A stretch of 46,640 bases of DNA from a virus: the IMG/VR virus record IMGVR_UViG_3300027976_000060, positions 1 through 46,640 of that record; one strand, written 5' to 3'. The notes beneath the pieces were generated by a model. It did not search any database. It worked only from the letters and a program-made list of their open reading frames with translations, and was not told the DNA's origin. Below, piece by piece: positions 1,329-46,003 of the stretch (positions are counted from its first letter, which is position 1; each line of letters starts with the position of its first letter). The translations under genes were made by a program, and so were the position numbers.

Positions 1329-2313
1329 CTATTTCTCTCGGTCTGTTAATTTTCTTTTCGAGTTGACGTTTCTTCAACTCAATTTTTATCTTGCTTGTTT
1401 CTCTTGATTGCATAATAGTTAGCAACGTTGGCAACTTTCCCCACAGTTTCACAGCGTCGTTGATGTCTTTCACTGTGCTTGGCCACTCAGGTATACTCAC
1501 CGCCCACCCCAACTCTACCGCACGGTCTATCAGTGCAAGCCCAGCTTGATCTTGATCTGGCACCACAGTAACGTCACGACCTAAGCTGCGTATCAATCTT
1601 GCTTGCTCGTCACTTATTTGATTGTGCATAACAGCCAATCCACTGATACACAGCGCATCAAATATGCCTTCTGTCACGATCACATGTTGCCAGTCAGCCT
1701 GTTGTAGATCCATGCCAAACACGTACCCCTGTTGCATGTCGTTGATGTAACGTGGATTTCGGTCATCCAAGAATCGTATTGTACTGCCCACTACTTGATT
1801 GTTGTATGTAAACGGAATAACAACGCCGCTTCTACTGGTGGCTGCCACCATCAACGGATAGTCTTCAGGAACGCATCTGTTTCGCAAGTATGCCCATTCC
1901 GCAGGACTATCCGGTGTTACAAAATCTGAAAACTCTGGAAGTTCTGCTTCTTTGAATTCAATCGGTTTTGTATTGTTCCACTCGCGTTGCCGATCTTCCA
2001 ACATACCTTCCATACTGCGATGGCGCATGCTTTCGAGATTTATTTGATTGATATCGTTTTCCGAAACGCCTATCCATTCAAGCAATCTACGTGCTTTGAA
2101 TCCAATGTTGCGGCCAAGAATAAAACTTGCAGTGTATCCGCAGTTGAAACACGAATAACTCCAGCCCTGGTCAGACAATTTAATACCACCTCTGCCTCGG
2201 CGATCAGGAGTGTTGCCGTTGTGAGCGCAACAAGGTGCATTGCCGGAGATCCAGCCCGATGGGCTTAGTTTAGTTTTTCTTCCTGTTTTCCAATATGAGA
2301 GGATGTCGATCAA
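1321..2313 (-). CDS. 61: DNA primase, gp61-like (zinc-binding plus TOPRIM)
   Basis: 330 residues, close to the 342 of T4 gp61. An N-terminal zinc-binding module is visible (C28, C29, H31, C55, C58). A TOPRIM core follows, with the glutamate motif VTEGIFDAL (E215) and the DxD pair VPDQDQAG (D253, D255). It should lay RNA primers for lagging-strand synthesis together with gp41, whose gene overlaps its 3' end. The start is unusual. The only usable initiator is TTG at 2313, because an in-frame TAA lies three codons upstream; GGAAAG about ten bases before the TTG can serve as a ribosome site. The first 44 bases of the gene overlap the 3' end of the GIY-YIG endonuclease gene, so the invader probably replaced the original start region. 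Confidence 0.9.
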   Translation of the reverse strand: MIDILSYWKTGRKTKLSPSGWISGNAPCCAHNGNTPDRRGRGGIKLSDQGWSYSCFNCGYTASFILGRNIGFKARRLLEWIGVSENDINQINLESMRHRSMEGMLEDRQREWNNTKPIEFKEAELPEFSDFVTPDSPAEWAYLRNRCVPEDYPLMVAATSRSGVVIPFTYNNQVVGSTIRFLDDRNPRYINDMQQGYVFGMDLQQADWQHVIVTEGIFDALCISGLAVMHNQISDEQARLIRSLGRDVTVVPDQDQAGLALIDRAVELGWAVSIPEWPSTVKDINDAVKLWGKLPTLLTIMQSRETSKIKIELKKRQLEKKINRPREIDA

Positions 2314-2953
2314 TGCGTATTACTTTCCACAAATTTTCATTTTTTCTTTTAACTAACGGTTGTGCATTATTATAACATTTTCTATACGCCGAGAACAAGC
2401 CCCAATACGTTATTTTTATTTCATTTTTATGTAATTCGGCAAATTCTTTGAGCCCTAAATTAGTTGTCCATTCTTTGCCATCCGGTGACGTTATTTTATA
2501 AGTTCCTTTATGTGAATCGCTTTTGCGTTTTTTTGTTTCAGTAGAGTCTTTAGAATTATTATATCTTCGTTTTTGACCAATACTGCAATTTAATGCCCGT
2601 TTTTCTTTCCACTCAGTTGATACATTTTGCCAAAATAGTTTTGCAGAGTCTGAATCATGGCCATCGCCGCCTGCAGTTACATTATAACCAGTTTGTAACG
2701 TTTTATATTTGTGTATCCAGTATTTTTCTCTTTCGTTTAACTCATCCGAAGACCAGTTAATATTTTGTTCTATAATCTTAAATTTCATGTTAACCCACCC
2801 ATATTTTCGAATGGCTTCAAGGACAGGCCGCTTTATGTTTAGAAAATATTTTGCGGCTGATTGATAAAGTATAGACTTTTGAGTTGGGTCAATAGTGCTT
2901 TTGCCAACGTATTGTTTGCCGGATGGTGATGTAATAATATAGATGTATTTCAT
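2270..2953 (-). CDS. GIY-YIG homing endonuclease, free-standing
   Basis: 227 residues from the ATG at 2953; a TTG further upstream is in frame but not needed. The N-terminus has the GIY-YIG core in the form KYIYIITSPSGKQYVGKS, with a downstream glutamate-containing helix (NEREKYWIHKYKT) and the closing GYNVTAGGDG segment. The C-terminal half is basic and contains a second TSPDGKEW/GLKEFAELH stretch resembling the NUMOD1 helix-turn-helix modules of group I intron and free-standing endonucleases. The gene sits between a virion-type gene and the primase and overlaps the primase start. A late-type box (GATAAATA) ends five bases before the ATG, so it appears to carry its own promoter. It would cut intron-less or insertion-less alleles to spread; the target is not visible. 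Confidence 0.9.
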   Translation of the reverse strand: MKYIYIITSPSGKQYVGKSTIDPTQKSILYQSAAKYFLNIKRPVLEAIRKYGWVNMKFKIIEQNINWSSDELNEREKYWIHKYKTLQTGYNVTAGGDGHDSDSAKLFWQNVSTEWKEKRALNCSIGQKRRYNNSKDSTETKKRKSDSHKGTYKITSPDGKEWTTNLGLKEFAELHKNEIKITYWGLFSAYRKCYNNAQPLVKRKNENLWKVIRIDRHPLILENRKKN

Positions 2954-2958
2954 ACACC

Positions 2959-2966
2959 TATTTATC
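2959..2966 (-). promoter_or_regulatory. Late-type promoter box GATAAATA before the GIY-YIG gene
   Basis: Matches the T4 late promoter octamer (TATAAATA) at seven of eight positions on the minus strand. Five bases (GGTGT) separate it from the ATG at 2953. With T4 geometry (+1 six bases past the box) transcription would begin at the ATG itself. Confidence 0.55.
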
Positions 2967-2985
2967 AAATAACAGTTAAAACAAA

Positions 2986-6764: not shown

Positions 6765-7407
6765 TTGTTTTTAATTTTGTTGTTACTTCAGCAGCAAATT
6801 TTTGTTGCCAGCTAGGGTCAGGCACATGGAACAGTGGCGAGCTTGTTTGCAGCTCAAGAGGATATTTTGCTAAATTAAAATCAATTTTATGTTTGTCAAA
6901 TTGAGAAAATTGATCAACAATGCGTGACATACGGGACTGTTCGATATTGTCGTGATCCTTGAGCATACATTCAAATATGCTCAATGAGTATACAAATGGA
7001 ATATTCAAACTCTTTAGAGTATGCAATGCACCAACAATTTGCCAACATGTGCCGGCAATATTCCATGCTGGGTCAGTTAATGACTGGTAAAGTGTTATTA
7101 GCAATTTCTGATCCTTGTCCAGTACATGAGATAATGCACTTGTTATCCACTCCCTATTGATGTAGGGGCTGGTGTTTTTGAACTCAATTCTATCAGTGCC
7201 AGTGAAGCCAATGACCACGGCCGCAGGGCCGAGTGTTAAACCGCTGATCAGTTCATGTAGTATCATGCCAGTTGAATTTCCAGGAAATGCACGATTATCT
7301 ATTTCATAATCCGGCAGCATTTCAGACCAATGCTGATCCGGAAACTTGGGATCTTTATGAAAATAACTGTCGCCTACTATCAATAGCCTGGGCTTGGTTA
7401 CTTCCAT
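6736..7407 (-). CDS. SGNH/GDSL-like hydrolase family protein
   Basis: 223 residues. The N-terminus reads RLLIVGDSYFHKDP, the block I strand and GDS nucleophile motif of SGNH hydrolases (S around residue 14). An asparagine-containing segment (RAFPGNSTGMI) and VVIGFTGTDR correspond roughly to the oxyanion blocks. The C-terminal FHVPDPSWQQKFA sits where the Asp-His pair is expected, but the order differs from the usual DxxH, so activity is uncertain. Members deacylate or de-esterify sugars or lipids; phage copies may trim host surface polymer or act in glycan modification. Its ATG overlaps the end of the UvsW C-terminal gene, so the two are co-translated. Confidence 0.6.
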   Translation of the reverse strand: MEVTKPRLLIVGDSYFHKDPKFPDQHWSEMLPDYEIDNRAFPGNSTGMILHELISGLTLGPAAVVIGFTGTDRIEFKNTSPYINREWITSALSHVLDKDQKLLITLYQSLTDPAWNIAGTCWQIVGALHTLKSLNIPFVYSLSIFECMLKDHDNIEQSRMSRIVDQFSQFDKHKIDFNLAKYPLELQTSSPLFHVPDPSWQQKFAAEVTTKLKTIDTPLVDLL

Positions 7408-8240
7408 TCCAATTTCTCCTGGGTGAAGTTATATTTAGCCTCCCTGTAAAATACTTTTCTCTTGGTCAAGTGTCGTTTGGCAAACTTACAAGTGCTAGTC
7501 ACATCCCAGATTTGTACGTGGTCTTTGTCTTCTGCTTTCCTAATACCACGTCCAATAGATTGGATAACGCGCACAAAGCTCTTGCCGGGTTCCAGAAGAA
7601 CCAGATTAAAAATCCTAGGAATATTAATACCCACAGCGGCCACACCATAAGTCGCCACAATAATCTTCCCAGTACTTGTTGCAATTTCATCATATTCATC
7701 TTGTCTTGCTCCTGCTTTGGTTGCGCCTGATACAAATACCGCTCGGTCGCCCAGGCGTTCGACCAAGGCGTGACCCGCTGCTACACGGTCTACCAATACC
7801 AATGTGTTGCCAGTGTCATTGACATGCTTTACCAAGTTGGCAATAGCAGTCAATCGGTCTGGTTCTTCTAACAAAAACTTCAACTCGCTTTGATAATTTG
7901 AAAACTCAGCATGATCAACCAACTGTACAATATTCACATGACATTGTGCCAACACTCCGCGATCTTGCAATTCGCTTGCACTTAGTTGATTGATAACAGG
8001 GCCCAAACTGCATTTCAATGCTTGAAACTCAAATGGCTCTTTGGGCACAGTTCCGGTCAACCCCCAACGAATTGGCACTCTTGCCATGATGCCGGTTAAC
8101 AGTGTTTTGAGTGCATCAGCTTTGGCCATGTGACAATTGGCCACTACTGCTCCATCAACCACATAGTTGTGGTTATTTTCTATATGTAAATTATATACTT
8201 TAGCGGGTTTGCTGATTTCAGTTCTTTTTACTAGTCGCAT
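7398..8240 (-). CDS. uvsW: UvsW helicase, C-terminal part, preceded by a C-intein
   Basis: 280 residues starting at ATG 8240 with AAAGGT as ribosome site. Residues 1-35 are a split-intein C fragment ending NHNYVVDGAVVAN, followed by the extein Cys+1. The extein starts CHMAKADALK, which joined to the VDE end of the 10173 gene restores the helicase motif II DECH (compare DECHLATGK in T4 UvsW). The second RecA-like domain follows, with LTGTVPKEPFEF (motif III region), ATYGVAAVGINIP (motif V) and QSIGRGIRK (motif VI arginine fingers). UvsW is the T4 helicase that resolves branched recombination intermediates and ends origin-initiated replication. The combined extein is about 486 residues. Activity requires trans-splicing. 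Confidence 0.92.
   Translation of the reverse strand: MRLVKRTEISKPAKVYNLHIENNHNYVVDGAVVANCHMAKADALKTLLTGIMARVPIRWGLTGTVPKEPFEFQALKCSLGPVINQLSASELQDRGVLAQCHVNIVQLVDHAEFSNYQSELKFLLEEPDRLTAIANLVKHVNDTGNTLVLVDRVAAGHALVERLGDRAVFVSGATKAGARQDEYDEIATSTGKIIVATYGVAAVGINIPRIFNLVLLEPGKSFVRVIQSIGRGIRKAEDKDHVQIWDVTSTCKFAKRHLTKRKVFYREAKYNFTQEKLEWK
8136..8240 (-). mobile_element. Split intein, C fragment (UvsW)
   Basis: 35 residues at the N-terminus of the UvsW C-terminal gene. They hold the YNLHIENNHNYVVDG block and the terminal VVAN, ending with Asn at the splice site; extein residue +1 is Cys (8133-8135). The length is typical of canonical split inteins such as gp41-1 and NrdJ-1. Confidence 0.92.
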
Positions 8241-9129
8241 ATATACCTTTGATTTTTGTTGCTGTGTTTATATCAAATCTATTATAATCAATTTGTTCTG
8301 TACGATCAAGAAACCATTCTTTTGTTACTAAGATAACTCTGTATCCATTTTGCAGTGCCCACTTTTCTAATGCAACCATTTTGGCATTGAACTTATTACC
8401 AGTACATAGTTCAATTGGTTTTACTTCAACAACATATTTTTGAATATGATCAACAAAATCCACAATATAAATGTATTCTGAATTTTGGTAATTATACCTG
8501 ATTCTTAGTTTTTCATACTCGGCAGTAGGACTGAAATATTGATACAATGCCTCCCAACTAGATCTAAATTTTTTATTATCAAGGATTGATTCCCAATGAG
8601 AATTTCGGTTGTTTGAGTTAGGTGTAAATGTTCCTGCTAGTATTCGGTCTTTTATTAACTGTGAACGATATTCTTTGCCGGCTGCTGACATCCTGATTCC
8701 GTACATGCCATTGCCAGACCCACTGTTTTTTAAACTAATTTTATCTTTGACCTCTTGTGTGCAAGGGGGCATGGTTCCTATTTTTTGACCCTTTGTACCG
8801 GCGTTCCACGAAACACCTGTATTTAAATTTGCTCTTGTTAATCCTGGATATTGCTGTTGAACTGCAAGTCCGCCGAGTCGGCTAAGCTGTGATTTAATTT
8901 CTTGCTCAGTTACAGTCCCTGCTAATAAGTTATCTATATTGTTAACCCACAAACTTGTTTTAGAATTTAGTATTCTTTTTTTAAATCGAATAAACTGGTT
9001 ATCCAATAGTATTGTGTTGTTTGATAAGGTCAATGTTTGTTGTCCAAACTCTACTACTCGTGCCGTCTGCCCGGCAAGCTTCAGTGCTATGTTTAATTTG
9101 ATTATCCATTCATCATATGTAATTTTCAT
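8218..9129 (-). CDS. Homing endonuclease, NUMOD3 plus PD-(D/E)XK nuclease, in the fractured uvsW locus
   Basis: 303 residues, lying between the two UvsW half-genes. A central NUMOD3-type DNA-binding segment is visible (EVKDKISLKNSGSG, NGMYGIRMS). The C-terminal domain has a PD-(D/E)XK-type core: SSWEALYQYF, then YIVDFVDH and VVEVKP (D...ExK), then RVILVTKEWF. This matches the Vsr-like endonuclease class found in fractured genes with split inteins. The gene has its own AGAGG ribosome site and a late-type box CATAAATA that overlaps the stop codon of the upstream half-gene. Its last 23 bases overlap the start of the C-terminal half. It would cut uvsW alleles lacking the insertion and so carry the split intein along. 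Confidence 0.87.
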   Translation of the reverse strand: MKITYDEWIIKLNIALKLAGQTARVVEFGQQTLTLSNNTILLDNQFIRFKKRILNSKTSLWVNNIDNLLAGTVTEQEIKSQLSRLGGLAVQQQYPGLTRANLNTGVSWNAGTKGQKIGTMPPCTQEVKDKISLKNSGSGNGMYGIRMSAAGKEYRSQLIKDRILAGTFTPNSNNRNSHWESILDNKKFRSSWEALYQYFSPTAEYEKLRIRYNYQNSEYIYIVDFVDHIQKYVVEVKPIELCTGNKFNAKMVALEKWALQNGYRVILVTKEWFLDRTEQIDYNRFDINTATKIKGIYATSKKN

Positions 9130-9153
9130 AAATACCTCTGCATTAGTTATGTG

Positions 9154-9161
9154 TATTTATG
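9154..9161 (-). promoter_or_regulatory. Late-type promoter box CATAAATA before the endonuclease
   Basis: The octamer overlaps the end of the N-terminal UvsW gene. Here a leader of about 20 bases follows and contains AGAGG seven bases before the ATG at 9129, unlike the leaderless cases. Confidence 0.5.
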
Positions 9162-10173
9162 TTTTATTCAAAATATTATGATGTTCGGTTAGTTCATCGG
9201 CCCGGCACCATCCTTGAGTTGTGAGAAATTTATGATTACCAGTGACTTGTATTTTTACACCGGTATCAAACTCTAATTCATACATTTTTTCACTGGCAGA
9301 ATTTGTTAAATTTTTATGGTGTTTCACAACAGTATCTGTTTTAAATTCTTGCGTTTCTTCGGAAAAATTAACTATTGTGTCACCTACTTTAATATCTTTT
9401 ATAAGAACATACCCGTCGGGGGTCAATACTCGAGCATTGCCATCAAAACACTCGTCAACCATTACACAAACAACATCTTCAATGAAGTCTTGTATGGTAC
9501 ACTCTGCTACACCACTCTTGGTATTCTTCATCAGCACATTTAAACTTTGCCATGTGCATATTGTATGTGTACGTCCAAATTCTTTACGGTCTCCAAAGTA
9601 AACACCCACATCTAGCCCCAAGTTGACATAGTCTGCTTCTGTTTGGCCAACCAAACTCTTGTTGGGCACAATAACAATACTGCGACCATACGGTTCAATG
9701 CTCAAACTCAGTGCTGCTGTCATCAGTGTCTTGCCAGCACCTGTTGCCACTTCTTGTATGCATTGTGGGTTGCAAAGAAACGCATTGATAATCTCCACTT
9801 GGTAGTCACGCAACACCACAGGTTGTCCTGCCATGGGATGTGTTTTGGGCCATACCTTGTGAGCGAATGAGTCTTCTTTGATATGGTCAAATTCAAATGT
9901 GGTCGAGTATGTACGCTGATCATCTAGCTCAATATCGTAATTGAACTTTTCCAGTATAGGCACAATCTCTGGCAACAGATTTACATAGGTACTGCCACCC
10001 AATTGAAAGTAACTAACCTTGCCGTCCCATCGTCCCAAACGAACCGCGGGCAAGTATCGAGCACCGGGCACATCATATTTAAAAGCATTAGTTAATGCAC
10101 GGCGTGCATCCAGTTCAAGCCCTTCAATTTTGATATTGACTTCGTCTCGTATTACAATTGTGGCTTTTTTCAT
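9157..10173 (-). CDS. uvsW: UvsW helicase, N-terminal part, followed by an N-intein
   Basis: 338 residues: 241 of extein and 97 of intein. The extein holds the UvsW N-terminal DNA-binding region (RYLPAVRLGRWDGKVSYF), a Q-type motif LRDYQ (121-125), Walker A VATGAGKT (142-149), a motif Ia-like IVIVPNKSLVGQ and a final VCVMVDE (motif II). The reading frame then enters the intein at Cys242. The gene ends well before the second helicase domain, which is encoded separately at 7398-8240. Its ATG overlaps the stop of the 287-residue gene upstream (ATGA), so it is part of the operon driven by the sigma-70 promoter at 11039-11067. Confidence 0.93.
   Translation of the reverse strand: MKKATIVIRDEVNIKIEGLELDARRALTNAFKYDVPGARYLPAVRLGRWDGKVSYFQLGGSTYVNLLPEIVPILEKFNYDIELDDQRTYSTTFEFDHIKEDSFAHKVWPKTHPMAGQPVVLRDYQVEIINAFLCNPQCIQEVATGAGKTLMTAALSLSIEPYGRSIVIVPNKSLVGQTEADYVNLGLDVGVYFGDRKEFGRTHTICTWQSLNVLMKNTKSGVAECTIQDFIEDVVCVMVDECFDGNARVLTPDGYVLIKDIKVGDTIVNFSEETQEFKTDTVVKHHKNLTNSASEKMYELEFDTGVKIQVTGNHKFLTTQGWCRADELTEHHNILNKT
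9160..9450 (-). mobile_element. Split intein, N fragment (UvsW)
   Basis: 97 residues from Cys1 (CFDGNARVLTPDGYVLIKDI, block A) to the stop. They include the block B region KIQVTGNHKFLTTQGWC with its TxxH motif (TGNH). The insertion point is between the Glu of VDE and the Cys of the DECH box, inside the helicase active site. Confidence 0.93.
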
Positions 10174-30639: not shown

Positions 30640-31746
30640 TTAGCGAAATGATGCAAAGAACGGCATCGGTTCCACCATACTATCACTGAAATCACGCATT
30701 TGCGAGTCCATTTCAGTGTGGAAATTCTGTAGAATCATCATCATCCGAATGACAAGTAATGTGCTCATGACCAAGTCGTCTGTTTCCCCTGGTTTGGCAG
30801 CATAACTTGTTCCATGTGCCACAAAGGTTTTTAACTCTGACACCAATGGAGAACTGTTGATTACCATTTTTTTAGATTCCACTAGGATTTTTAACTTGCT
30901 ACAAGCAGACAGTTTGCTTTTGTTTGTGGTGTTGAAACCTTTTCGTATTCTACGGGAACCGCCAGCTACAGAATTATCGCTTAGAAAATATCCTTCGATG
31001 TTTTCTTCACCAAATTCAGCAATGGAAATAAGTGCAGCTTCACCAATGGTGTTGTTTTCAACACTGTAGTAAATACTCTTAGAATCTTTTACTGTTTCAT
31101 TTATGTGTTTACAAATGTCAGCCAATATGCGTATTTGTGTAGGAATTGTTGTTTTATTGTGGCGCCATTCTGCTACTTGAGTAGTTGAGTTTGCTTCAAA
31201 CACTTGTATGGCTGCCGGGTCGCCGCCAGTGCCCAAACTGGGATCCAGTGCTACAACATAGATTTTTCCCGCTTCGGGTTTCTTGTACCAACGTACTTGG
31301 CCGGTTCTGAACAACGGTTCTTGTTGTCCTTGCAATTCAACAAGTATGGCCGGAGCAATAAGTGTTTCATCATTGATAATAAATTCACAGTTTGCGACCA
31401 ATATATTATTTGCATAATATCTGCGTAAAGGGCCTGCATTTACTATGTCGTATGTCTGCAACTCGTTAGATAACGATACTGACACTATGGTATCAATGCC
31501 GCTAGTGACAATGATAGCATCGCCTGGTTTTAGTTGTCTTGCTTCTTTGGTTATAAACTTTGGTGAGAATACTTTATGATCTAATGTACATTTGATCTGA
31601 GATGTGGTTGTTTTTACTACTACTGTTTGCAGTGGTTTATATCGGGCCACTATGCCTGAGAATTTTTCCCATCCGCTGTCAGATAAAATTTGCAAATTTA
31701 AATTATTTTTTCGAAATTCGTCCACGCATAAATCCTTCTTCAACAT
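30640..31746 (-). CDS. 17: Terminase large subunit, C-terminal part, preceded by a long C-intein
   Basis: 368 residues from ATG 31746 (an upstream in-frame TTG is rejected; AAAGA precedes the ATG). Residues 1-119 are an unusually long intein C fragment. The extein then begins CEFIINDETLI, the conserved continuation of TerL after the ATPase domain, and holds the RNase H-fold nuclease: VVALDPSLGTGGDP with the first catalytic aspartate, YSVENNTIG, and a late GETDDLVMSTLLV with another acidic pair. The nuclease cuts concatemeric DNA during headful packaging. Joined to the 32689 gene the extein is about 524 residues (T4 gp17 610). Trans-splicing is needed to unite motor and nuclease. Confidence 0.93.
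   Translation of the reverse strand: MLKKDLCVDEFRKNNLNLQILSDSGWEKFSGIVARYKPLQTVVVKTTTSQIKCTLDHKVFSPKFITKEARQLKPGDAIIVTSGIDTIVSVSLSNELQTYDIVNAGPLRRYYANNILVANCEFIINDETLIAPAILVELQGQQEPLFRTGQVRWYKKPEAGKIYVVALDPSLGTGGDPAAIQVFEANSTTQVAEWRHNKTTIPTQIRILADICKHINETVKDSKSIYYSVENNTIGEAALISIAEFGEENIEGYFLSDNSVAGGSRRIRKGFNTTNKSKLSACSKLKILVESKKMVINSSPLVSELKTFVAHGTSYAAKPGETDDLVMSTLLVIRMMMILQNFHTEMDSQMRDFSDSMVEPMPFFASFR
31390..31746 (-). mobile_element. Atypically split intein, C fragment (TerL)
   Basis: 119 residues. They contain block B (TSQIKCTLDHKVFSP), the LKPGDAIIV turn, YDIVNAG, and the terminal RRYYANNILVAN before Cys+1. A normal split intein has only about 35-40 residues here. The long C fragment matches the known AceL-TerL type (25 + 104 residues) at the same C-extein sequence, CEF. 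Confidence 0.93.
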
Positions 31747-31762
31747 TGTCGTCTTTAAATTG

Positions 31763-32689
31763 TCAATTAACAATTCTTGTTAAGCTGTGTAACTCGGCCA
31801 TTGATATTTTTCGAATAGAACCATTTGGTAATTTTATTGTCACAAGCGCATCGCCTGTAACACATCCAATCTCTCGGCGGAATCGATCAGTGCCCAATTG
31901 GGCTTCCATACTCTTGCCCCAGGCTGCATCACGGTCTGGGTGTTCTTCCCAAAAACTACGGAATGCCTTGAATCCATTTATACCCAGTGGAGTGGGGTTG
32001 CCGTATTCATCTTCGCACTTTAACGCACTTTTCCATAACAATGCAAACTGATCTTCGTCTGAGTTTGGTGTACTTGTGATAATGGCCTTACCGCCAGTTG
32101 CCAACGTAGGGCTGATAGCAGTCCAGAACTCTTTGGCAATGGTAGGACGAACAAATGCAAATTCGTCAGCGTACAGCAACGATATACTCATACCTCGACC
32201 GGTTGTTTCTGTTGTGGTGGCCGATACAATGCGTGATCCGTTTTCAAAGTCTATACTGCCTTTGTTATAACTGGTAACACCTGCACGAATATGGTCTGGA
32301 CATAGTTCGTATGCAAAGCGAATGCGTTGCATAATTTCCTGGGCACCTGTGTATTTGTGTGCAGCAATAAGAATAGTACTATCAGGCACAAACATTGCAT
32401 ACCATAACAAGTAACCTGCAGCTGATGTTGACTTGCCTGTTTGCCGAGGCATCATTGATATGCTGAAACGATAATTGTGATAAACATCAACCAATCGTTC
32501 TTGATACTCAAAAGCATGATACAACATTTTTCCTTGTGTAGGATGCTGTATGTTGAAAAAGTTATCTAGAAAGTAAGCAGGACCCGTGACTGGATCAGCA
32601 CAGTCCATAAATTCTGTTATTTCATGTTCTGTGAATGCTTGCCGCTTGTGCGGTGCTTTGATCAGTACGCCTTCTAAACTTTTAGTCAT
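31763..32689 (-). CDS. 17: Terminase large subunit, N-terminal ATPase part, followed by a short N-intein
   Basis: 308 residues: 275 of extein and 33 of intein. The packaging ATPase is complete: Q-like FEYQERLVD, Walker A MMPRQTGKST (79-88), Walker B LLYADE (171-176), and coupling motif ITSTPNSDEDQ (from 205). The extein ends RFRREIG just before the intein Cys1. Its start overlaps the SGNH gene stop (TAATG). The stop is 16 bases upstream of the C-terminal gene's ATG, so both halves come from one message and no endonuclease gene lies between them. Confidence 0.93.
   Translation of the reverse strand: MTKSLEGVLIKAPHKRQAFTEHEITEFMDCADPVTGPAYFLDNFFNIQHPTQGKMLYHAFEYQERLVDVYHNYRFSISMMPRQTGKSTSAAGYLLWYAMFVPDSTILIAAHKYTGAQEIMQRIRFAYELCPDHIRAGVTSYNKGSIDFENGSRIVSATTTETTGRGMSISLLYADEFAFVRPTIAKEFWTAISPTLATGGKAIITSTPNSDEDQFALLWKSALKCEDEYGNPTPLGINGFKAFRSFWEEHPDRDAAWGKSMEAQLGTDRFRREIGCVTGDALVTIKLPNGSIRKISMAELHSLTRIVN
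31766..31864 (-). mobile_element. Atypically split intein, N fragment (TerL)
   Basis: 33 residues starting CVTGDALVTIKLPNGSIRKI (block A) and ending HSLTRIVN. The split lies right after block A, before block B, which is the atypical S1-like position of AceL-TerL. The first residues CVxGDxxV agree with that intein. Confidence 0.93.
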
Positions 32690-42712: not shown

Positions 42713-45700
42713 TTACCCGGCTGCAATCTCTCCTGTATTCTTGATACGGACTGGGATGTAGATAAACTCAACAGCCTTGACTGGCTCAATAGCAATATCA
42801 ACATACAATTCATTGCGATCAATACGAGCTGGTGTGTTGTTTGTCAAGTCACAAACAACCAAATAGTCATACAATGCACGTTTAGCAACCAAGTCAATCA
42901 TCAAACCGTCAATGGCGTTCTTAAGCTGATTGCGAGTGATCTGATCGTTTGGTTCAAACAAGTATTGCTTACCAATTACATCTAAGCGACCACGCACAAA
43001 CGCAACCAATCTTGCTACGTTTATACGATCTAATGCACTTGCTGAAGTTGTGCTTGTCTTGTTACCAAAGTTGGTAATACCAACTCCCGGAATGAACGTA
43101 ATTGGGTTGATTGAGTTTTCATACAACACATCACGCAGACCTTGTCGCACACCCAGTGATTCAAATTCGCCTGTGGTTGCGTTGATATAACCAATTTGTA
43201 AAGCATTGTCAACAACACCGCGACGTGTTCCTGCTGGTGCGAACCAAGGAAACGATACTTCGTCACTGCGGATAATTGTTCTAATCATCATATGACTTGG
43301 AGCTGTTACTACAGAACTACCACTCAAATCAGTTGTTTGGCAACTTGGATAGAATACACCCATGTAAGTGTCGGCAGCAATTAAACCGTCAGCAGTGTCT
43401 AATCCTAATCCATTGTTGTTGCTGGCCCATGTCAATATATCCTGTGGGTTCAAGCGCAACGGTGTATCACCAATTACAAATGCTGTGTTGTTGCGCTCAT
43501 TGTTGAGTGCAATCATGTTTGGCGTTAGTTCGGGATATGCAGGTGCTGCTAGCAAGTTGAACTGACGCTGTTCTTCACGGATATCAGTGTTGGTGTCAAT
43601 ACCGGACTTCATGGCTGCAACAATCAATGCACGCTGTGCCTGGCGACCCATGTATGGAGCACCAGTAGATTTTAGTCCACCTGTTGTTACCCAAGCATTT
43701 GATACAGCTGGTAATGTATCATCTGGGAATGTGTCAGAGTTGAAGTAATTTACTTGGAAACTCTTGACGTTAAATCCAGAACGGCGTGTGTTAAACAACA
43801 ACATGCCTTGCGGATACAATGTTGGCAGTGGAGCATCCAAGTCCAAATAATCACTGGTCAATAAACTAGTGATTGTAGGCAATGCGCCGGTGATTGGGTC
43901 AGTGGTGCCATTGGTTGCCCACCTGGCATCAGCAAACAATGCACCATTTGATGTGGTTTGGTCAGTGTTGTTGATAACTACCCATTGGTCAACTCCGCTT
44001 GCGCTTTCCCAACGACTCAGCACTGGATAATTTTCTAAGTCACTTGTGTCAATCCACAAATCACCATACACCAATGGAGACTCAGATACGTCAGTTTGTG
44101 TAGTTGGTGCAGTAGCACTGATAATAGGACCGGTAGCGTTGGTGTTGCTCAAATCGTAACCACGAACATCGTTTGTCACGTTCTGATAACCTTGCCATGT
44201 TCCGTTGTCCTGAATCATGATGTCAACTTGATCAGCAGCACTGTAGTACCATAATGTACCGTCTAATGGATCTTGGTCCGGTGCATCATTGCTCGCAGTA
44301 TATGTAAATGTTGGAGTAGAAACCCAGTTACTTAATGCTAGCCCCGTTGCAACACCGTCTCCATACAATTGATGAACGCCTCGAACACTGGTATTAAATC
44401 CGGCTGCGGTAACAGGTGTTCCAATTACGTTGAACAATCCTATATTGCCGCCTGCAGAATGTGTAAGCACAATTGCGCCTGCGCTATTGGTAGTAGCACT
44501 AACATAAGGAATGTTTGCTGCACTAACTGCGGCAATAAAGTCAGCTGTTGTGGTTCCGAGCAAGGTAGCAGTAGCAGTTGTGTATACGGACGAGCCAGGT
44601 GCTGTGCCAGTTATTGTAAATGTGTTGTTGAGTACAAACGGTCCTGGTGTATCGTCGCTGCCGGTGATTTCTGTTGCACCTGTTGCAAATCGTTCAAAAA
44701 TAGTAATACTGCTTGTGGTATTTTTGAGTGAATCAACAAACCCGTATGTTGATCCAGCAGCAATATTAACACCGCCGCCGCTTGGGTCAAGGCCATAAAG
44801 TGCTTCACCAGTTGACAGATACAACGGGCAGGCCTGTTGTACAAACAATCCCAATGTGGCATTGTATTTTTTAACTGACAATGCAGCACCAGAATTAACT
44901 GATGAAATTTTTTGCCATACACTGCCGGTTGGGTGTGGCTGAGTTTGTGTAGAACCCCATCGTGGAGCATTATAACTTGGTGCTGCCAAATAAGCAGGAG
45001 CATAATATTCACCAATAGCAATGCCCAGTGTTGTCAATGGTGTGCCTGTTCCGGTTGCTATAGAAACAATGCCGCCGTTGCCTGTGCTGCCGTCATTTGT
45101 AGCTGTGGAATCAGCATACATGTACAGTTTGCCGCCAATTGTGGCAGCGTATACGCCAGTAATTGCTGCTGTGTTGATTGCAGTAGCAACACCGTCAACT
45201 GTGTTGTTGGGGTTGACAGGAACTGTAATTATTGTATCGTTAACAGTGAATGTATTTCCTGCTGTCAGCGCTGTTGGAGCTAATGTGCCTGATACTGTGG
45301 GCCATGATGTTTTCCAATCATCGCTGCCGGCCAATACCCAGGTATTGTACAGGTCTGACAATGCTGTTTCGCTTGTTTGTGCAGAAGTTGGGCCACCACG
45401 CTTGTAATAGCCTGGGTTAAATGTACTGGTTGCTGTGATAGCATAGTCACCAATACTGCCGACTGTTTGCAAAGGAACACTGGTGCCACTTTCTAATTGT
45501 GTTGTACTTGTAATTACAATAGGTGCTTTGACTGTAAAGGCACCGGTGGTCTGATTCCATTCAAAAATGCCCCACTGTGAATTGACAGTGTCTAACCAAT
45601 ATGCATTGTTGTTGGGCGAGCCTGTTGGGCGAGTTAATGTGGCTGTCAGTTGTGTTAAGTCAATATCAACACGCTGTACATACACGCGGTTACTTGCACC

Positions 45701-46003
45701 CAGTGCAGAGTAAGCAGCTAGTAAACCATATTCGTTTAATTCGTAACCGTTGATTGGAGTACCAGCGGTTGTTTTATAAAAGAATGGGTTACCGTATGTG
45801 GCAGCCAAATCGCGTTGACTTGTAATCAAATATACTTTGTTAGCGTTTGCTGCCAAAGTGCCTGGTGCCACGCCAGTGCCTGCTGCACTGGCTTTGTTTT
45901 GGGCGGTTGACAACAAAATATACGGTACTGAATTGGTAGCAGCAGGAATGTATTGACTCTCGTCAATGATCGTTACTTCTACACCTGGTGATGTTAATGC
46001 CAT
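42713..46003 (-). CDS. 18: Tail sheath protein, gp18, with large insertions
   Basis: 1096 residues, against 659 in T4. The N-terminal TSPGVEVTIIDESQYIPAAT and the C-terminal domain (INPITFIPGVGITNFGNKT, NQLKNAIDGLMIDLVAKRAL, ARIDRNELYVDIAIEPVKAV) are typical of contractile sheath proteins. Several hundred residues of Thr/Ala/Gly-rich beta sequence are inserted in the middle, with two similar units around LTAGNTFTVNDTIITVPVNP and VLNNTFTITGTAPGSSVY. These probably form extra surface domains on the tail. It has its own late promoter and terminator and so is a single-gene unit. Confidence 0.94.
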   Translation of the reverse strand: MALTSPGVEVTIIDESQYIPAATNSVPYILLSTAQNKASAAGTGVAPGTLAANANKVYLITSQRDLAATYGNPFFYKTTAGTPINGYELNEYGLLAAYSALGASNRVYVQRVDIDLTQLTATLTRPTGSPNNNAYWLDTVNSQWGIFEWNQTTGAFTVKAPIVITSTTQLESGTSVPLQTVGSIGDYAITATSTFNPGYYKRGGPTSAQTSETALSDLYNTWVLAGSDDWKTSWPTVSGTLAPTALTAGNTFTVNDTIITVPVNPNNTVDGVATAINTAAITGVYAATIGGKLYMYADSTATNDGSTGNGGIVSIATGTGTPLTTLGIAIGEYYAPAYLAAPSYNAPRWGSTQTQPHPTGSVWQKISSVNSGAALSVKKYNATLGLFVQQACPLYLSTGEALYGLDPSGGGVNIAAGSTYGFVDSLKNTTSSITIFERFATGATEITGSDDTPGPFVLNNTFTITGTAPGSSVYTTATATLLGTTTADFIAAVSAANIPYVSATTNSAGAIVLTHSAGGNIGLFNVIGTPVTAAGFNTSVRGVHQLYGDGVATGLALSNWVSTPTFTYTASNDAPDQDPLDGTLWYYSAADQVDIMIQDNGTWQGYQNVTNDVRGYDLSNTNATGPIISATAPTTQTDVSESPLVYGDLWIDTSDLENYPVLSRWESASGVDQWVVINNTDQTTSNGALFADARWATNGTTDPITGALPTITSLLTSDYLDLDAPLPTLYPQGMLLFNTRRSGFNVKSFQVNYFNSDTFPDDTLPAVSNAWVTTGGLKSTGAPYMGRQAQRALIVAAMKSGIDTNTDIREEQRQFNLLAAPAYPELTPNMIALNNERNNTAFVIGDTPLRLNPQDILTWASNNNGLGLDTADGLIAADTYMGVFYPSCQTTDLSGSSVVTAPSHMMIRTIIRSDEVSFPWFAPAGTRRGVVDNALQIGYINATTGEFESLGVRQGLRDVLYENSINPITFIPGVGITNFGNKTSTTSASALDRINVARLVAFVRGRLDVIGKQYLFEPNDQITRNQLKNAIDGLMIDLVAKRALYDYLVVCDLTNNTPARIDRNELYVDIAIEPVKAVEFIYIPVRIKNTGEIAAG

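What the first reader, a model, noticed from the sequence alone, without database searches (positions are those of the whole stretch)
7398..10173. UvsW helicase broken by a split intein, with a homing endonuclease gene in the gap
Three genes on the minus strand form one unit: a UvsW N-half ending in a 97-residue N-intein, a NUMOD3 plus PD-(D/E)XK endonuclease, and a C-half beginning with a 35-residue C-intein. The splice joins VDE to CHMAKA and rebuilds the DEAH-type box of motif II, so the helicase is inactive until trans-splicing occurs. This is the fractured-gene arrangement known for gp41, IMPDH and ribonucleotide reductase genes from aquatic samples. I am not aware of a well-studied UvsW case. 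Insertion in the most conserved motif fits known intein site preference.
Basis: partly seen in the sequence, partly recalled or inferred. Interest (0 to 1): 0.85.

Follow-up and report, generated by a model that had tools for sequence, protein, structure and literature searches.

The report
Phage helicase broken by split intein
A phage DNA-repair helicase gene (uvsW) is cut inside its catalytic motif by a two-part self-splicing protein element with a DNA-cutting 'homing' gene in the gap; this is a known kind of mobile element at a site that seems not to have been described, and related phages carry two such breaks in the same gene.

Summary
On the minus strand, 10173-7398 holds a UvsW N-half ending in a 97-aa N-intein, a 303-aa endonuclease ORF, and a C-half beginning with a 35-aa C-intein. 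Two other assemblies match it, 100% and 99.99% identical. Forty-two distinct alleles were found. In the 25 with both intein halves read, every splicing residue is invariant, and the intein is under purifying selection. A contiguous 130-aa version exists, and its model matches solved inteins. The closest relatives are uninterrupted.

The same element sits at the same UvsW site in cultured phages (Salmonella S16 and STP4-a, Proteus PM2), unannotated as an intein. Exteins are about 25% identical to the window's, inteins about 60%: horizontal movement.

Correction: splicing does not restore the family's own box. Uninterrupted relatives read DE-V-H (128 alleles) or DE-A-H (4); all intein alleles leave DE-C-H. 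The splicing nucleophile Cys+1 stays as a permanent residue in motif II. Uninterrupted T2 and KVP40 UvsW have DECH naturally, so it should be tolerated.

In 11 related alleles a second split intein at motif I leaves UvsW in three pieces. The window's own terminase is also split by an intein.

Known kind, new member. Splicing and homing remain untested.

The parts
9451..10173 (-). UvsW N-extein (241 aa; UvsW_N-like, motif I GAGKT, ending at motif II ...CVMVDE)
   Evidence: ResIII 2.1e-10; PHROG DNA helicase families; 78-91% aa identity to uninterrupted relatives over full length
9160..9450 (-). N-intein, 97 aa: Cys1 block A CFDGNARVLTP, block B VTGNHKFLT; stop codon at 9157-9159
   Evidence: intein_Nterm TIGR01445 3.2e-9; catalytic residues invariant in 25/25 alleles
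8218..9129 (-). Free-standing endonuclease, 303 aa: N-terminal part, NUMOD3-like middle, C-terminal PD-(D/E)XK domain (E193, D224, E235-x-K237)
   Evidence: Family-level Pfam NUMOD3 and TnsA_N; AF2 pLDDT 83.5; Foldseek to TnsA 1t0f (prob 0.96, E 0.086) and I-Bth0305I 3r3p (prob 0.72, E 0.24); dN/dS 0.12-0.35 in family pairs
8246..8250 (-). Shine-Dalgarno-like AAAGG before the C-half ATG, inside the last codons of the endonuclease ORF
   Evidence: direct reading; purine-rich stretch at the same place in most of 22 loci
8136..8240 (-). C-intein, 35 aa (own ATG; block F VYNLHIENNHNY, block G VVAN, terminal Asn); overlaps the endonuclease ORF by 23 bases in another frame
   Evidence: intein_Cterm TIGR01443 4.2e-5; overlap conserved across alleles
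7398..8135 (-). UvsW C-extein (245 aa plus stop; starts with Cys+1, CHMAKA; motifs to VI)
   Evidence: Helicase_C 7e-8; 94-95% identity to uninterrupted L035/L036, which have Val in place of Cys+1

Best explanation
It is a mobile composite element made of a class-1 naturally split intein and a free-standing PD-(D/E)XK homing endonuclease, inserted after the DE of motif II in a phage UvsW helicase. Three proteins are made from one minus-strand unit. The two helicase halves find each other through their intein parts, which form one Hint domain, and trans-splice to give a continuous UvsW whose motif II reads DECH (inferred from sequence). The endonuclease cuts intein-free uvsW alleles in co-infecting phages at or near the motif II site, and repair from the intein-bearing copy installs the whole element together with its Cys+1 codon (inferred). 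The intein keeps the insertion harmless; the insertion in an ATPase motif means that only exact loss is tolerated. Shown here: anatomy, homology, invariant splicing residues, purifying selection, empty sites, repeated gain or loss, horizontal transfer, link of Cys+1 to the insertion. Inferred: trans-splicing activity, DNA cleavage and homing.
For: Intein profiles on both halves. A contiguous 130-aa version of the same intein at the same site (L133) whose AF2 model matches solved inteins including NrdJ-1, gp41-1 and Npu DnaE (46 PDB chains at E<=0.001). C1, TxxH, block-F His, Asn and Cys+1 invariant in 25/25 distinct alleles; intein dN/dS 0.07-0.15. Endonuclease dN/dS 0.12-0.35. Empty sites in the closest relatives (L035/L036, 94-95% C-extein identity). 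On an extein tree of 25 intein and 60 empty rows the label needs 12 changes, at least 10 forced by starred branches, and the window's sister is empty. S16 vs PM2: extein 59%, intein 90%, endonuclease 71%; L017 vs L117: extein 99%, intein 73%, endonuclease 65%; intein and endonuclease identities co-vary (r=0.89), extein and intein less (0.59). All 42 distinct intein alleles have Cys+1, against 128 Val, 4 Ala, 6 Cys in uninterrupted ones. Same element and site in isolates S16, STP4-a, PM2. No Rfam group I intron in the loci scanned.
Against: No splicing, cleavage or homing has been measured. Foldseek support for the endonuclease is by probability only (no E<=0.001), and in S16/PM2 the ExK lysine is Arg. 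The penultimate intein residue is Ala, not the common His (also Ser or Ala in 23 of 25 alleles; known active DnaE split inteins share this, from memory). Tree support is from a quick search with SH-aLRT only.
Confidence: 0.87

Rival explanations
1. Genes in pieces: the two halves assemble non-covalently into a working helicase without splicing, as known for the nrdA split by mobE in phage Aeh1 (from general knowledge and PMC2988022, PMC10448857).
For: The halves break between motifs, and a phage nrdA split by a homing endonuclease gene is known to work in two pieces (cited).
Against: There would be no reason to keep every splicing residue in 25/25 alleles at dN/dS 0.07-0.15, nor to switch Val to Cys at +1 in all 42 intein alleles.
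Confidence: 0.05
2. The split intein is also a regulatory switch: trans-splicing delays or conditions UvsW activity during infection, and the host phage benefits.
For: Conditional splicing is known for some inteins (e.g. mycobacterial DnaB, PMC6195587, PMC7360933). UvsW acts late in T4 (general knowledge). A Cys is used at both nucleophiles, so redox sensitivity is conceivable.
Against: The scattered distribution with many empty relatives and intein replacement between near-identical exteins fits a selfish element; no regulatory evidence.
Confidence: 0.08
3. The endonuclease has lost homing activity or has been domesticated, and the split intein is a relic inherited vertically.
For: L131 has lost the endonuclease but keeps the split; L133 is a fused mini-intein without it.
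Against: The endonuclease ORF is open in the large majority of alleles, is under purifying selection, keeps E/D/ExK residues and travels with the intein.
Confidence: 0.1
4. Pseudogene or assembly artefact: a frameshifted contiguous intein or broken uvsW.
For: N-half and endonuclease happen to be in the same frame in the window, separated by a stop and 27 bases.
Against: Two other contigs match at 100% and 99.99%; the same three-ORF layout occurs in many alleles, with the endonuclease in a different frame from the N-half in many; cultured phages have it; selection holds all parts.
Confidence: 0.01

Closest known systems
UvsW split gene of Salmonella phage S16 / STP4-a (gp114, gp114.1, gp115) and Proteus phage PM2
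   Same: Same insertion point (DE|C...N|CH), homologous N- and C-inteins (54-63% to the window), homologous endonuclease (34-37%), same gene order and ORF overlap.
   Different: Exteins only about 25% identical; Straboviridae UvsW carries DECH naturally (T2, KVP40), whereas the window's relatives carry DEVH. Annotated only as 'DNA helicase' and 'hypothetical protein'.
Fractured genes of Dassa et al. 2009 (gp41, IMPDH, NrdA/NrdJ split inteins with a free-standing endonuclease)
   Same: Conserved enzyme gene broken by a split intein with an endonuclease ORF in the gap, found in aquatic phage-like sequence.
   Different: Different gene. The window's endonuclease is NUMOD3 plus TnsA-like PD-(D/E)XK, whereas I recall the Dassa family as EDxHD/Vsr-like. 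The paper is not in the held library, so its exact list of loci could not be checked.
Split PolB intein with HNH endonuclease in Pseudomonas jumbo phage MIJ3 (PMC6892783)
   Same: Split intein with homing endonuclease gene between the halves, jumbo phage.
   Different: DNA polymerase B host gene and HNH endonuclease.
TerL split in Escherichia phage HY03 and Shewanella phage Thanatos-2; clamp-loader split in L033/L034
   Same: Homologous endonuclease C-terminal domain (about 40% in TerL cases) and insertion right after the Walker B 'DE' before Cys.
   Different: Different host ATPase; inteins themselves clearly more distant.

Membership tests
Class 1 intein | N-terminal Cys/Ser, block B TxxH, C-terminal Asn, +1 Cys/Ser/Thr | tested here: met
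   All four in the window and in 25/25 distinct alleles; intein_Nterm and intein_Cterm above cut-off
Class 1 intein | Hint fold | tested here: met
   Contiguous homologue L133 modelled (pTM 0.74), best PDB matches are inteins, E 2.9e-7
Naturally split intein | Two halves on separate polypeptides, each fused to one extein | tested here: met
   Separate ORFs with stop and own start in the window and many relatives
Naturally split intein | Trans-splicing activity | not testable with these tools
   Needs co-expression or proteomics
Fractured gene arrangement (Dassa et al. 2009) | Split intein in a conserved enzyme gene with a free-standing endonuclease ORF between the halves | tested here: met
   empty homologues
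Fractured gene arrangement (Dassa et al. 2009) | Endonuclease of the EDxHD/Vsr-like family (as recalled; not essential to the arrangement) | tested here: inconclusive
   Family profile matches TnsA_N and NUMOD3; only weak Foldseek similarity to I-Bth0305I. By eye, motif-I endonucleases in related contigs look closer to that family
PD-(D/E)XK homing endonuclease with NUMOD3 | Catalytic E...D...ExK core and NUMOD3 DNA-binding repeats | tested here: met
   E193, D224, E235, K237 invariant in 21 members; NUMOD3 in 16/21 and TnsA_N in 20/21 members; neither significant in the window protein alone
PD-(D/E)XK homing endonuclease with NUMOD3 | Cleavage of intein-free target and biased inheritance | not testable with these tools
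   Only indirect: 12 label changes on the extein tree and discordant identities
UvsW helicase | UvsW N-terminal domain, SF2 motifs in both lobes, similarity to annotated UvsW | tested here: met
   UvsW_N (sub-threshold), ResIII, Helicase_C; best phage hits are UvsW-like helicases at 49-56%

The most novel reading that the evidence does not exclude
UvsW motif I and motif II are two linked homing sites. In at least 11 distinct related alleles both are occupied by split inteins with different endonuclease families, so a working helicase must be assembled from three separate polypeptides by two specific trans-splicing reactions. At the motif II site the element also rewrites the host's catalytic box from DEVH to DECH, leaving its own nucleophile as a lasting residue in the ATPase motif and a trace that may persist after the intein is lost (L126).
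Probability: 0.7. Interest if true: 0.7.

Novelty: new member of a known kind. Interest (0 to 1): 0.52.

Why it matters
The three-piece alleles would offer naturally co-evolved pairs of split inteins that must not cross-react, which is useful to protein engineers.

Tried and rejected
Group I intron instead of intein: Rfam search of five loci gave nothing. Endonuclease profile against PDB sequences: no match. Relatives in bacterial genome contigs: none. Pfam/NCBIfam on the window endonuclease alone: no significant hit; the family scan was needed. An alignment mixing N- and C-intein fragments misaligned because of Hint pseudo-symmetry and was discarded. Dassa et al. 2009 is not held, and no held paper was found that describes a UvsW intein; absence from this library is not proof of absence. 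Considered and dropped: assembly error and a second intact uvsW in long relatives.
Full report
What is there. The window is a 46,640-base IMG/VR virus fragment with tail sheath, terminase, UvsX, SSB and primase genes, so a large T4-like tailed phage. On its minus strand three ORFs follow one another: 10173-9157 (338 aa), 9129-8218 (303 aa) and 8240-7398 (280 aa). The first is the N-part of a UvsW-like helicase up to ...CVMVDE plus 97 residues that match intein_Nterm (3.2e-9) from Cys242. The last starts with 35 residues that match intein_Cterm (4.2e-5) and continues as CHMAKADALK..., the rest of the helicase. The C-half has its own ATG with AAAGG upstream, inside the endonuclease's last codons and in another frame. 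The overlap of 3-37 bases recurs across alleles, and a purine-rich stretch stands before most C-half starts. Two further contigs match, at 100% (7,224 bases) and 99.99% (8,909 bases).

The two halves are one intein. L133 carries the same intein at the same site as one contiguous 130-aa domain inside a 632-aa UvsW ORF. Its AF2 model (pLDDT 80, pTM 0.74; the last 12 residues are poorly modelled) matches solved inteins, with 46 PDB chains at E<=0.001, among them DnaB, NrdJ-1, gp41-1 and Npu DnaE. In 25 distinct alleles Cys1, the block-B T and H, the block-F His, the terminal Asn and Cys+1 are invariant, and intein dN/dS is 0.07-0.15 in ten pairs. Trans-splicing itself is inferred.

The endonuclease. 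Alone, the window protein has no significant Pfam hit. Across 21 relatives, TnsA-like N-terminal nuclease matches 20 (best 1.8e-10) and NUMOD3 16 (best 4.6e-12). E193, D224, E235 and K237 are invariant there; S16 and PM2 have Arg for the Lys. The AF2 model has a confident alpha/beta nuclease domain; Foldseek gives TnsA (1t0f, probability 0.96) and I-Bth0305I (3r3p, 0.72), but with E-values of 0.09-0.24. dN/dS is 0.12-0.35 in the informative pairs. DNA cleavage and homing are inferred.

Empty sites and mobility. The nearest relatives, L035 and L036 (90-91% N-extein, 95% C-extein), are uninterrupted. On an extein tree of 25 intein and 60 empty rows the label needs at least 12 changes, with 10 forced by starred branches, and the window's sister is the empty L035 (quick search, SH-aLRT support only; sampling is by similarity to the window and is not a frequency survey). 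S16 and PM2 are 59% alike in extein but 90% in intein. L017 and L117 are 99% alike over aligned extein residues but 73% in intein and 65% in endonuclease. Intein and endonuclease identities co-vary (r=0.89) more than extein and intein (0.59). This is horizontal movement of intein and endonuclease together.

Known relatives in culture. The same arrangement at the same site is in Salmonella phages S16, STP4-a, UTK0003, CF-SP2, SEA1 and AKM_NP4 and in Proteus phage PM2, with halves called 'DNA helicase' and the middle ORF 'hypothetical protein'. S16 has one uvsW place only. Long contigs of window relatives also have one.

The Cys+1 residue. Splicing would give DECH. Of distinct uninterrupted alleles, 128 read DEVH, 4 DEAH and 6 DECH; all 42 distinct intein alleles have Cys. 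Two of the six are T2 and KVP40, which carry DECH naturally. The others (L124, L126, L148, L149) lie in or near the intein-rich clade, and L126 groups with intein-bearing L014/L015, so it may be a scar of exact intein loss (inference). The element therefore changes a residue of the host's ATPase motif, to one that other UvsW proteins tolerate.

Two breaks in one gene. A second insertion lies in motif I (GAGK|T). It is contiguous in L032, L059/L139 and split elsewhere. Eleven distinct alleles (L030, L116, L117, L121, L123, L127, L130, L131, L197, L198, L199) have both sites split, so UvsW comes in three pieces, the middle one carrying a C-intein at its start and an N-intein at its end. In L117, L123 and copies the first N-half is fused to its endonuclease. 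L131 has lost the motif II endonuclease but keeps the split. These are related contigs, not the window. I know of no described natural case of this, but I could search only open-access papers.

Literature. No held paper mentions a UvsW intein. Dassa et al. 2009 is not held. A split PolB intein with an HNH endonuclease is described in jumbo phage MIJ3 (PMC6892783). The arrangement is therefore a known kind; the UvsW site is a new member as far as I could check.

Verdict. Observation confirmed, interpretation supported with one correction (DECH, not a restored box). Most likely a selfish split-intein/homing-endonuclease element whose cost is removed by trans-splicing.

Noticed in passing
window 30640-32689 (-): The window's terminase large subunit is also split by an intein: N-half 32689-31763 ends ...RREIG|CVTGDALVTI...TRIVN, C-half 31773-30640 carries ...YYANNILVAN|CEFIIND. 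The split is very early (about 33 aa N-intein), the ORFs overlap and there is no endonuclease in the gap; Pfam intein hit on the C-half is sub-threshold.
   Followed up: partly
L030/L115, L116, L117, L121, L123, L127, L130, L131, L197, L198, L199: UvsW broken twice, at motif I and motif II, by two split inteins; endonuclease ORFs of two different families sit in the gaps of several of them.
   Followed up: yes
L033:2911-5250 and L034:589-2928: Clamp-loader-like AAA+ subunit split at its Walker B (LLDE|C...HN|CDYL) with an endonuclease related to the window's in the gap.
   Followed up: partly
L004:1896-4748 and L006:467-3567: T4-like TerL (HY03, Thanatos-2) split after Walker B IDE|C with a related endonuclease; in Thanatos-2 the endonuclease is fused to the N-half in one ORF.
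   Followed up: partly
L126, L124, L148, L149: Uninterrupted UvsW with DECH inside or near the intein-rich clade: possible scars of exact intein loss, or pre-adapted sites.
   Followed up: no
window 2270-2968 (-): GIY-YIG-type homing endonuclease ORF overlapping a primase ORF (1321-2313), the primase apparently shortened at its N-end.
   Followed up: no
window 42713-46003 (-): Unusually long tail sheath protein (1096 aa) matching a 915-aa PHROG over its length.
   Followed up: no
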